Below, piece by piece: positions 34,285 to 36,406 of a stretch of 64,000 nt of DNA. The translations under genes were made by a program, and so were the position numbers. This stretch comes from Vampirovibrionales bacterium (GTDB lineage: Bacteria > Cyanobacteriota > Vampirovibrionia > Vampirovibrionales > Vampirovibrionaceae). A model generated the notes under the pieces. It saw only the letters and a list, made by a program, of their open reading frames with translations. It ran no database searches and had not been told where the DNA came from. The stretch spans positions 350,705-414,704 of the forward strand of contig JARXAD010000013.1 of NCBI GenBank assembly GCA_029866025.1, given 5' to 3'. The first letter of the stretch is position 1. Each line of letters begins with the position of its first letter.

Positions 34285-34629
34285 ATGAATGCTCAATTGA
34301 CCCAACTCACTGTTCTTTCGGCCTTATTACTTCAATTCTCTGCCGCAGGTTTTGCTGCCACCCCAGCCGTTACTGGCAATAGCAGCTTGTTTGAACTCAC
34401 TGAATTGCCAGTGATGACGACAGGAAGCTCTACGCTGTTGGCTGAAAAATGTGGTAGTGGTGCCTGTGGTGGCAAAAAAGAAGAACATAAAGCCACCGAC
34501 CACAAATGTGGTACCGAAGCCAAGGCTAAAGATGCGGATCACAAATGTGGTACCGAAGCCAAGGCTAAAGCTAAAAACGCCGAGCAAAAATGTTCGTCCG
34601 CCAAATGTGGTAGCAAAACCAGCCACTAA
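34285..34629 (+). CDS. Cys-repeat secreted precursor peptide of MNIO (HvfA/bufferin-like) RiPP locus
   Basis: Signal peptide, FELTEL, AEKCGSGACGGKK, repeats DHKCGTEAKAK x2, EQKCSSAKCGSK; RBS AGGAG at 34270; immediately upstream of MNIO gene. Confidence 0.8.
   Translation: MNAQLTQLTVLSALLLQFSAAGFAATPAVTGNSSLFELTELPVMTTGSSTLLAEKCGSGACGGKKEEHKATDHKCGTEAKAKDADHKCGTEAKAKAKNAEQKCSSAKCGSKTSH
34501..34569 (+). repeat. 30-bp perfect direct repeat CACAAATGTGGTACCGAAGCCAAGGCTAAA inside precursor gene
   Basis: Copies at 34501-34530 and 34540-34569. Confidence 0.95.
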
Positions 34630-34700
34630 TATAAGGTTACTATTTCCTCTAGGCGATTGTTTACTCAATGGCCTAGAGGGTTTTTAAAAAGGCAAGTATT

Positions 34701-35597
34701 ATGCCATCCTTTTCTGATTATATACAAGGGCTGCCTTGGCTAGGCTTTGGCGTTGGCCTAAAAGACACCTACTGTGATGCCATCGTGAGTCATGCCCAAA
34801 CTGCCGATTGCACGGAGCAGATTGATTGGCTGGAAATTATTCCCGAAAACTATATGAATAAAGGTGGTTACTCCTTAGATGTATTAAACACCCTCATTAA
34901 AGCAGACTTTCCCATGTCGTCTCATGGGGTGAATCTATCTTTAGGCAGTACCGACCCGTTAAATACAGACTATGTAAGCTCCCTAAAAGAATTGTTTAAT
35001 ACGGTTCAGCCCGTATGGTTTAGCGATCACTTATCCTTTAGTTCCGTAAACGGTCATTATTTAAATGACTTAATGCCATTGCCATTTTCTCAAGAGGCGG
35101 TAGACCATTGCGTTACTAAAATTTGTCAAGTGCAACAAGAGTTCGAAGCTCCGTTTATCATTGAAAATATTTCTTACTATGCCGAATTTAAAGACGCAGG
35201 AGGCATGAACGAAGCCGAATTTTTAACCCAAATTTTAGAGAAATCTGATTGCGGTTTATTATTAGACATTAACAATGTGTATGTAAATAGTCGCAATCAT
35301 GGGTATGATCCCATCGGGTTTTTACAGTCGATTCCTTTGGAGCGGGTGGTTGAAATCCACATTGCAGGCCACTTGGTAGGTGATGAACTAATTATTGATA
35401 CTCATGGCGAACCTGTCTGCGACGATGTCTTTGAACTATTTCGCTGGGTGTACCCGCGTTGCAACAATATAAAGGCGATACTGTTGGAACGAGACACCAA
35501 CTTACCTCCTTTTAATGAACTAATGGCGGAGTTAAAGGCCGTGAGAATGACAGCCTTGAGCAGTTCATTAAAGCCCATGGGAGCATTAGCTGCATGA
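34701..35597 (+). CDS. MNIO/DUF692 family enzyme (HvfB/BufB-like)
   Basis: EIIPENYM, SHGVNLSLGS, FSDHLSFS, ENISYY, LLLDINNVYVNSRNHGYDP, EIHIAGH, IDTHGEPVCDDVFEL. Confidence 0.93.
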   Translation: MPSFSDYIQGLPWLGFGVGLKDTYCDAIVSHAQTADCTEQIDWLEIIPENYMNKGGYSLDVLNTLIKADFPMSSHGVNLSLGSTDPLNTDYVSSLKELFNTVQPVWFSDHLSFSSVNGHYLNDLMPLPFSQEAVDHCVTKICQVQQEFEAPFIIENISYYAEFKDAGGMNEAEFLTQILEKSDCGLLLDINNVYVNSRNHGYDPIGFLQSIPLERVVEIHIAGHLVGDELIIDTHGEPVCDDVFELFRWVYPRCNNIKAILLERDTNLPPFNELMAELKAVRMTALSSSLKPMGALAA

Positions 35598-36406
35598 GCT
35601 TACAGGCTTTTCAAACCTTGTTCTACAAACTAGCCACGACATCTGAAGAGACTGCGACAATTCTAGCTGAGGATCTGGCCTTATCAGGTCTGTTCTTAGC
35701 GCTTCCCAACCATCAACTTCAGCAATATCGCTGGATGGTGTATGCCAACCATGCCGAAACCTTAGAAACTATTTATCCTCTTACCTACACACTGCTAGAA
35801 GATACTTGGCAGCCTTTGGTTGAACACTATTTAGCGGCCTATCCACCCAAACATTACCAGCTATATGAAACTGCAACAGACTTTCCACAATTTATAGCTG
35901 AGCAAGCTAGTTGCACCAAGCAGTATCCTTTTGTTGTTTCCTTGGTTGCCTATGAACTATTGGAAGCCAGCATTTTAAGAATGCCCTCAAATGACCTTCC
36001 AAAGAACTCTACCAGAGAAGTCATCACTTCTTTTAATCTAGGTCAATTGTCGCCCATTCTACAAGAGGCATCGGCTTCCTTTGTTTGTGAATACCCGCTC
36101 AATACGATTGTAGAAATACTCAAACAAGACTCTCTTAATATCGATAAATTACAGTCTATAGAGCCACAGCCCCTCCACCTGTGGGTTTACCGAGATTCAG
36201 AATTCCAGTGTCGTTTTCTAAAGGTTACACCTTTTATTTTGGCGTGCTTAGAAAACTTTAGGAAAGCTCCTGACTTATCGCATGAAGGACATTTGTACAC
36301 TGTGACACAGGGCTTCAACCTTGAAATAAAGAATGATCTTAAGAAGAACTACTGTGAACTGATTCAAAATTTTTTGTCTTTTGGGGTATTGCTAGGATCT
36401 CGATGA
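35594..36406 (+). CDS. MNIO partner protein (DUF2063/HvfC-BufC-like)
   Basis: Overlaps MNIO gene by 4 bp; VYANHAETLETIYPLTYTLLEDTWQPLVEHYLAAYPP...FPQFIAEQ. Confidence 0.85.
   Translation: MSLQAFQTLFYKLATTSEETATILAEDLALSGLFLALPNHQLQQYRWMVYANHAETLETIYPLTYTLLEDTWQPLVEHYLAAYPPKHYQLYETATDFPQFIAEQASCTKQYPFVVSLVAYELLEASILRMPSNDLPKNSTREVITSFNLGQLSPILQEASASFVCEYPLNTIVEILKQDSLNIDKLQSIEPQPLHLWVYRDSEFQCRFLKVTPFILACLENFRKAPDLSHEGHLYTVTQGFNLEIKNDLKKNYCELIQNFLSFGVLLGSR

What the first reader, a model, noticed from the sequence alone, without database searches (positions are those of the whole stretch)
34285..36406. HvfABC/bufferin-like MNIO RiPP locus with an unusual Cys-repeat precursor
Seen in sequence: a secreted 114-aa peptide with six Cys, five of them in KC contexts (EKCG, DHKCG x2, EQKCS, AKCG), lies directly upstream of a clear DUF692/MNIO enzyme and a translationally overlapping DUF2063-like partner. 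Established: MNIO plus DUF2063 enzymes modify Cys residues of secreted peptides (bufferins, HvfA-type oxazolins) linked to copper binding. The FELTEL...AEKCG layout recalls HvfA, but the repeat is [EHQ]KC[GS] with KAK-rich spacers rather than EGKCG. If the host is a Vampirovibrionia-like cyanobacterium, this would be an under-described branch of the family.
Basis: partly seen in the sequence, partly recalled or inferred. Interest (0 to 1): 0.85.

Follow-up and report, generated by a model that had tools for sequence, protein, structure and literature searches.

The report
Copper-peptide cassette in a non-photosynthetic cyanobacterium
A three-gene cassette in a non-photosynthetic relative of cyanobacteria very probably makes a secreted, cysteine-modified metal-binding peptide; it is a lineage-specific variant of the known HvfA/"captophorin" peptides, not a new kind of system.

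Summary
A 114-aa secreted-type peptide with six Cys (five preceded by Lys) lies 71 bp upstream of an MNIO (DUF692) enzyme. The MNIO overlaps a DUF2063/HvfC-type partner gene by 4 bp. All nine iron ligands and the catalytic base are present, and the partner folds like NGO1945 (3DEE). Order, sequence and Cys motif recur across the host's order, so this is not chance.

The host belongs to the phylum of photosynthetic Cyanobacteria but to a class without reaction centres. The nearest named relatives are Vampirovibrionales.

The precursor is a remote HvfA relative. It keeps HvfA's FxxxxL…LA segment and Cys-x4-Cys spacing at both ends, but far below NCBI's cut-off (24.5 of 95 bits). The MNIO misses both the BufB and HvfB cut-offs. 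It sits on the HvfB side of a tree, in a small clade that replaced the Arg-Arg pair with Lys-Asp-type residues and has Thr at the "Phe250" site, positions said to tune substrate choice. Best reading: each Cys becomes a 5-thiooxazole and the exported peptide binds copper; chemistry and metal are inferred.

This is a new variant of a known kind. More novel in passing: relatives encode MNIO–DUF2063–methyltransferase triple fusions beside multi-Cys repeat proteins.

The parts
34285..34629 (+). precursor peptide gene (114 aa, 6 Cys), HvfA-related, Lys-Cys type
   Evidence: HvfA model 24.5 bits; family alignment; shuffle control
34270..34274 (+). AGGAG ribosome-binding site of the precursor
   Evidence: read directly from sequence
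34285..34356 (+). putative Sec signal peptide (residues 1-24, ending AAGFA); n-region lacks Lys/Arg
   Evidence: by inspection of the translation; no signal-peptide predictor was available
34384..34443 (+). conserved leader segment SLFELTELPVMTTGSSTLLA, counterpart of HvfA-type NPFEIKTLSSGYQVA
   Evidence: alignment; canonical EGKCG relatives found by the profile
34444..34626 (+). Cys core: outer Cys-x4-Cys pairs C56/C61 and C103/C108, two single DHKCG in the middle; predicted disordered
   Evidence: AlphaFold pLDDT 46.6
34646..34685 (+). 13-pair hairpin followed by TTTTT between precursor and MNIO: likely partial terminator giving more precursor than enzyme
   Evidence: fold z = -3.96; similar hairpin plus T-run in several relatives
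34701..35597 (+). MNIO (DUF692, MbnB_TglH_ChrH) enzyme, 298 aa
   Evidence: Pfam 319.5 bits; ligands H75 H110 E155 D189 N192 H220 D233 H235 E263, base D265
35594..36406 (+). HvfC/PME1 partner (DUF2063 plus NGO1945_C), 270 aa, overlaps MNIO by 4 bp
   Evidence: Pfam; model pLDDT 87.6 matching 3DEE, E 6.5e-5; profile hit to 3DEE E 7.5e-10
33391..34182 (+). Crp/Fnr-type regulator directly upstream; possible but unproven part of the unit
   Evidence: the same Crp-DoxX pair occurs without MNIO in a relative, L069
32746..33237 (-). DoxX (HvfX-like, 53 bits, cut-off 80), divergent from the regulator
   Evidence: DoxX sits directly upstream of the precursor in L050 and L056
31104..32753 (-). DsbD/CcdA-TlpA-type thiol-redox membrane protein overlapping doxX; association by proximity only

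Best explanation
This is a complete precursor-MNIO-partner (HvfABC-type, 'captophorin') RiPP cassette. The precursor is made in excess over the enzymes, probably because a hairpin/T-run after its gene stops part of the transcripts. The partner (PME1) binds the N-terminal signal/leader part of the precursor and presents it to the MNIO. The MNIO's mixed-valent di-iron centre then oxidises Lys-Cys units, removing 4 H per Cys, to 5-thiooxazoles. The Sec machinery exports the modified, disordered peptide, which binds copper(I) through thiooxazole S/N outside the cytoplasm. Shown here: gene order, homology, iron ligands, partner fold, conservation across genera, hairpin. Inferred from characterised relatives: thiooxazole chemistry, leader function of the signal peptide, export. 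Inferred with less certainty: copper and stress protection, attenuation, and any role of the neighbouring DoxX and Crp genes.
For: MNIO: Pfam 2e-95; all ligands named for TglH (PMC10880893) and the FonB-type base (PMC13097082) are present and invariant in intact relatives. Partner: DUF2063 + NGO1945_C above cut-off; only significant fold match is 3DEE. Precursor: matches only HvfA-type models, none of 10 shuffles does, 13 of 17 relatives match too, and a profile reaches canonical EGKCG and EGKCG/EF-hand precursors. The tree puts the MNIO with HvfB-type enzymes and apart from Buf1/Buf2 enzymes, 100/100. All characterised MNIO-PME1 pairs install 5-thiooxazole (PMC13097082). Residues after each Cys are Gly or Ser; FonB accepts Gly and Ala there, and Ser is a similarly small residue but is not reported as accepted in the text read (PMC13097082). 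Hairpin z = -3.96.
Against: The MNIO lacks the Arg-Arg pair and the Phe of known Lys-Cys enzymes (KD and T), so its substrate choice, perhaps its chemistry, may differ. Every NCBIfam equivalog cut-off is missed. No copper gene adjoins the cassette. The relative in Microbulbifer was not induced by copper and its protective role was doubted (PMC12538549). The precursor's n-region has no Lys/Arg, unusual for a signal peptide.
Confidence: 0.75

Rival explanations
1. Same RiPP cassette and Cys modification, but the ligand or role is not copper sequestration: another metal (gold, zinc, iron), oxidative or hypochlorous stress defence, or copper uptake.
For: No copper gene next to the cassette. The neighbours are thiol-redox (DsbD/TlpA-like) and DoxX proteins. 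Microbulbifer mmr was not copper-induced (PMC12538549); gold and oxidative stress are also cited as inducers of such pathways (PMC13097082).
Against: EGKCG products tested for it bind copper (PMC13097082, PMC12538549). The redox/DoxX/Crp neighbours are not tied to MNIO in relatives.
Confidence: 0.2
2. The MNIO installs a different modification, because its substrate-pocket residues (Arg-Arg to Lys-Asp, Phe to Thr) have changed.
For: The change is shared by the window's clade: none of the 17 closest MNIOs has RR, while most others do.
Against: The Cys motif of this clade (DHKCG, KCGSGACG) is the same as in RR-bearing relatives. FonB R15A, R16A, F250A and F250D still make thiooxazole (PMC13097082). 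Ligands and base are intact.
Confidence: 0.12
3. The peptide is an unmodified secreted thiol or metallothionein-like protein and the MNIO acts on something else.
For: Cys-rich and Lys-rich composition alone could bind metal; whether Cys are modified cannot be told from sequence.
Against: Repeated pairing of this kind of peptide with MNIO and partner across genera; no second such peptide in the genome; one MNIO only.
Confidence: 0.05

Closest known systems
HvfABC (oxazolin) of nontypeable Haemophilus and the EGKCG captophorins (fontiphorin, gonophorin, bulbicupramide/Mmr)
   Same: Gene order precursor-MNIO-DUF2063 partner, N-terminal signal, FxxxxL...LA segment, Lys-Cys-Gly units, outer Cys-x4-Cys spacing, all iron ligands and base, DoxX in the neighbourhood.
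   Different: Repeat is DHKCG/KCGSGACG with KAK-rich spacers, not EGKCG; HvfA, HvfB, HvfC and HvfX cut-offs all missed; Arg-Arg pair and Phe of the pocket replaced; DoxX on the opposite strand; hairpin terminator after the precursor; host phylum Cyanobacteriota.
Bufferins Buf1 (DUF2282) and Buf2 (6/12 Cys)
   Same: Secreted Cys-rich precursor, MNIO and DUF2063 partner; the MNIO scores 302.9 against BufB's cut-off of 310.
   Different: No DUF2282/Buf2 similarity; MNIO separated from Buf1/Buf2 enzymes by a 100/100 branch.
Cys-Lys captophorin group, and the SCKG-repeat precursors of Obscuribacterales-like relatives found here
   Same: Related MNIO (about 50% identity) and partner, secreted Cys-repeat precursor.
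   Different: Cys precedes Lys (SCKGKEG repeats); own MNIO clade (96/99) with Gln, not Thr, after the catalytic base.
MbnB/TglH/ChrH MNIOs
   Same: Iron ligands and sequence family.
   Different: Far lower model scores (60-97 bits), different partners and precursors.

Membership tests
MNIO superfamily (PF05114) | Pfam profile above cut-off and the nine iron ligands | tested here: met
   319.5 bits vs 25; ligands by alignment to TglH 8hci and 3BWW and to 38 relatives
PME1 / HvfC partner | DUF2063 plus NGO1945_C domains, 3DEE-like fold | tested here: met
HvfA / Buf_EGKCG oxazolin precursor (NF050188, NF050137) | score above NCBI's curated cut-off | tested here: not met
   24.5 of 95 bits and 10.9 of 19.5 bits; remote similarity is real by shuffles
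HvfA / Buf_EGKCG oxazolin precursor (NF050188, NF050137) | repeated EGKCG 5-mers | tested here: not met
   no EGKCG in the peptide; DHKCG, EKCG, GACG, EQKCS, AKCG
HvfB equivalog (NF003818) | score above curated cut-off 360 | tested here: not met
   283.1 bits
BufB equivalog (NF050167) | score above curated cut-off 310 | tested here: not met
   302.9 bits; tree also separates it
Bufferin precursor (DUF2282 / Buf2) | DUF2282 or 6/12-Cys profile | tested here: not met
   no Pfam family matches the precursor; no Buf2 model was searched, Buf2 judged by eye against the L060 precursor
Captophorins (MNIO-PME1, Lys-Cys group) | MNIO + PME1 + Cys-rich precursor with Lys-Cys motifs | tested here: met
   class definition in PMC13097082
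Captophorins (MNIO-PME1, Lys-Cys group) | 5-thiooxazole on Cys, copper binding | not testable with these tools
   needs expression, MS/NMR and metal titration
Captophorins (MNIO-PME1, Lys-Cys group) | Arg-Arg pair and Phe (FonB R15, R16, F250) conserved in Lys-Cys MNIOs | tested here: not met
   Lys-Asp, and Thr directly after D265, in the window; site assignment by motif (GxGxGxRR, LERD-x), not with a FonB sequence
HvfX / DoxX | DoxX gene in the cassette | tested here: inconclusive
   DoxX 1 kb upstream on the other strand, 53 of 80 bits for HvfX; the Crp-DoxX pair occurs without MNIO in L069
Sec-exported RiPP precursor | N-terminal signal peptide | tested here: inconclusive
   hydrophobic segment and AxA-like site by inspection; no predictor; n-region lacks positive charge

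The most novel reading that the evidence does not exclude
The window's clade is a Vampirovibrionia-specific captophorin lineage whose MNIO has rebuilt its substrate pocket (Arg-Arg to Lys-Asp, Phe to Thr), so that it processes a non-EGKCG, Lys/Ala-spaced peptide with specificity, and perhaps an oxidation product, different from HvfB and BufB.
Probability: 0.25. Interest if true: 0.55.

Novelty: new variant of a known kind. Interest (0 to 1): 0.4.

Why it matters
The published surveys read here describe MNIO-PME1 cassettes mainly in Pseudomonadota. This one, with its relatives, shows that non-photosynthetic cyanobacteria carry their own branch. Within one class, closely related MNIOs are paired with Lys-Cys repeats, Cys-Lys repeats or tiny two-Cys peptides, and the pocket residues change too. 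That makes an evolutionary series for testing what sets MNIO substrate choice, an open question in the captophorin work. It also gives these little-known organisms, some of them algal predators, a testable metal-handling trait.

Tried and rejected
Chance or composition artefact for the HvfA likeness: rejected, 10 shuffles gave no HvfA match. Bufferin membership: rejected on tree and lack of DUF2282. Beta-helix fold as in long EGKCG repeats: not supported, the precursor model is disordered (pLDDT 46.6). DoxX-DsbD-Crp as an integral part: not supported, because the Crp-DoxX pair occurs without MNIO in L069 and DoxX lies elsewhere in most relatives. Promoter scan: 7 sites vs 7.2 expected, so uninformative; the terminator scan did not list the hairpin, probably because of its short-loop model. 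Rfam: nothing but a tRNA-Arg. Second copies of the precursor in the genome: none. The precursor of the closest complete relative (G012) was not found; an IS5-type element sits where it should be. A strict rule 'pocket residue predicts Cys motif' failed: L010 has Gln but a Lys-Cys precursor, and RR loss does not coincide with a motif change.

Full report
WHAT IS THERE. The window holds a 114-aa ORF (34285-34629), a 298-aa ORF (34701-35597) and a 270-aa ORF (35594-36406) on the + strand, the last two overlapping by ATGA. The first peptide has a hydrophobic N-terminus and six Cys: EKCG, GACG, DHKCG, DHKCG, EQKCS, AKCG. Five follow Lys and all six precede Gly or Ser. In 200,000 shuffles of the mature part, five or more KC occurred at 2e-4, six C[GS] at 4.5e-5, and both together never. 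The second ORF is an MNIO (PF05114, 319.5 bits, cut-off 25). The third carries DUF2063 (42.4 bits, cut-off 27.2) and NGO1945_C (33.7, cut-off 27).

THE ENZYME. The residues that bind iron in TglH (H71, H107, E151, D184, N187, H216, D229, H231, E258; PMC10880893) correspond to window H75, H110, E155, D189, N192, H220, D233, H235 and E263. The correspondence comes from the printed TglH and 3BWW alignments (the H71 equivalent comes from 3BWW). These positions are invariant or nearly so in 38 aligned MNIOs, the exceptions being at most two sequences per site, with two of the loci truncated. The catalytic-base Asp (FonB D249 in PMC13097082) is D265. The enzyme is therefore very likely active.

THE PARTNER. 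AlphaFold with 16 relatives gives pLDDT 87.6. Foldseek against the PDB finds one significant match, 3DEE, the gonococcal PME1 NGO1945 (E 6.5e-5). A profile of the 16 also finds only 3DEE (7.5e-10). PMC13097082 identifies 3DEE as a PME1 whose locus belongs to a bona fide RiPP pathway.

THE PRECURSOR. The only informative matches are NCBI's HvfA-type models, the better at 24.5 bits over residues 20-111, far under its cut-off of 95. Ten shuffles (five of the whole peptide, five of the Cys part only) give no HvfA match, so the likeness depends on residue order. Of 17 aligned relatives (window included), 13 match HvfA at E 0.01. A profile of the 17 collects 142 proteins. Among them are canonical precursors such as P0195 (NPFEIKTLSSGYQVA...EGKCGEGKCG) and EGKCG/EF-hand proteins. 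The shared parts are a leader segment, [NS]xFxxxxL...LA, and outer Cys-x4-Cys units (KCGSGACG at the start, KCxxxxCG at the end). The model of the peptide is disordered (pLDDT 46.6).

HOST. In the window's phylum, 40 of 100 sampled genomes carry Photo_RC (photosystem reaction centre) genes, but none of the sampled genomes in the window's class does. Named MNIO relatives are Vampirovibrionales, Obscuribacterales and 'Candidatus Melainabacteria'. The host is thus a non-photosynthetic cyanobacterium, most likely Vampirovibrionales; the name itself is inference.

DISTRIBUTION. MNIO is found in 13 of 19 genomes of the order and 77 of 392 of the class; none of the many small genomes of family f6 that were listed has it. 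The genome has one MNIO and one such precursor. In the order, precursors carry [DEH]HKCG or DKCG repeats after the leader segment. Closest precursors are 91, 56 and 45% identical; MNIO relatives at 52-65% come largely from unnamed database contigs.

POSITION OF THE ENZYME. A tree of 46 MNIOs separates Buf1/Buf2-linked enzymes, with one Vampirovibrionia enzyme, from the rest at 100/100. The other side holds the window, the other Vampirovibrionia enzymes, Myxococcota, and two HvfB-type enzymes from Cardiobacteriaceae, one of which was scanned and passes NCBI's HvfB cut-off. The window sits in a clade of four (100/99) with G012 (another family) and two Vampirovibrionales proteins, apart from the other enzymes of its own family. 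That suggests either transfer or an old split. This clade lacks the Arg-Arg pair of the GxGxGxRR motif (KD, QN, KE, KD). Among the 17 best database hits none has RR, while most of the other 103 do. The residue after the catalytic base is Thr in the window, Gln in enzymes paired with SCKG-repeat precursors, and Phe in FonB. PMC13097082 names these positions (R15, R16, F250) as tuning substrate choice. I placed them by motif, not with a FonB sequence. The motif in the precursors does not change with loss of RR, and FonB mutants at these sites still make thiooxazole, so a change of chemistry is possible but not favoured.

EXPRESSION. Between the precursor stop and the MNIO start is a 13-pair hairpin followed by T5 (34646-34685, z = -3.96). 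Comparable hairpin-plus-T-run structures lie in the same gap in L031, L034, L037 and L021, and after a second small ORF in L010; short gaps (L011, L014, L036, L012, L022) lack them. The simplest reading is partial termination so that precursor outnumbers enzyme. This is inference.

NEIGHBOURS. A Crp/Fnr-type regulator ends about 100 bp upstream, and divergent from it are DoxX and a DsbD/TlpA-type protein. DoxX is a usual companion (PMC12452194, PMC13097082), and it lies directly upstream of the precursor in L050 and L056. In L069, however, the same Crp-DoxX pair stands without MNIO, so I do not count these genes as part of the cassette.

MECHANISM AND FUNCTION. From characterised relatives: the signal peptide doubles as leader and the partner takes part in substrate recognition (PMC13419390); the MNIO removes 4 H per Cys to form 5-thiooxazole, which revises the older oxazolone/thioamide assignment for HvfA (PMC13097082, PMC13419390); products bind Cu(I) (PMC13097082, PMC12538549). 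I therefore favour a secreted copper-binding peptide. Against certainty: no copper gene adjoins, and in Microbulbifer the cassette was not copper-induced and protection was doubtful (PMC12538549).

VERDICT. Observation confirmed and interpretation supported in substance. This is a lineage-specific variant of the Lys-Cys captophorins, formally outside HvfA/HvfB/BufB by curated cut-offs. PMC12452194 already reports hundreds of unclassified signal-peptide precursors beside such MNIOs, which limits the surprise.

Noticed in passing
L096:603-3095 (-), L098:2222-4672 (+), L108:1936-4359, L109:2318-4768 (also L106, L107 by length), large-genome relatives of family f4: MNIO-DUF2063-methyltransferase triple fusions of 807-850 aa (Pfam on L096 and L098; the others by length only). 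Just upstream of several lie signal-less multi-Cys proteins (286 aa with 16 Cys; 374 aa with 19 Cys, KCVAMLPHQELL-type repeats) sharing a [DE]xLIxQALxL-like leader: a likely undescribed RiPP family with a methylation step. The main survey paper's text does not mention methyltransferase fusions.
   Followed up: partly
L012, L013, L018, L021, L023, L025, L028, L051, L055, L086-L093: Obscuribacterales-like relatives pair the MNIO with (KGKEGSCKG)n precursors, many with an MQKTQLAAALVAVLGL leader: Cys before Lys, no HvfA leader segment, enzyme with Gln after the catalytic base.
   Followed up: partly
L097:1975-3828, L099:2010-3887, L105:1480-3225: MNIO-DUF2063 fusions of 581-625 aa, a natural fusion of enzyme and partner (Pfam on L097 and L105; L099 by length).
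   Followed up: partly
L017:1346-1492, L020:2294-2476: Family f8 has no long precursor; a tiny two-Cys ORF (KCGEGQCGGDG / CGEDECGGDG) overlaps the MNIO start.
   Followed up: no
L010:2415-2726 (reverse strand): A second mini-precursor (about 60 aa, one Cys, AIDHCGTGKKGGEKK) lies between the HKCG precursor and the MNIO, followed by a strong terminator-like hairpin.
   Followed up: no
L039:8301-9266 and 12269-13234: In G012, the genome closest by MNIO, two near-identical IS5-type transposase genes flank the place where the precursor should be.
   Followed up: partly
L058:7669-7905: Hybrid precursor with both KCG and SCKG/GCKG units, next to an MNIO that groups with the Buf1/Buf2 side.
   Followed up: no
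L004 and L005, upstream of the MNIO: Myxococcota MNIOs are preceded by small Cys-repeat peptides of another kind (EASCGGEGSCG; GEGNCSGEGNCSGEG), some with lipoprotein-like signals.
   Followed up: no
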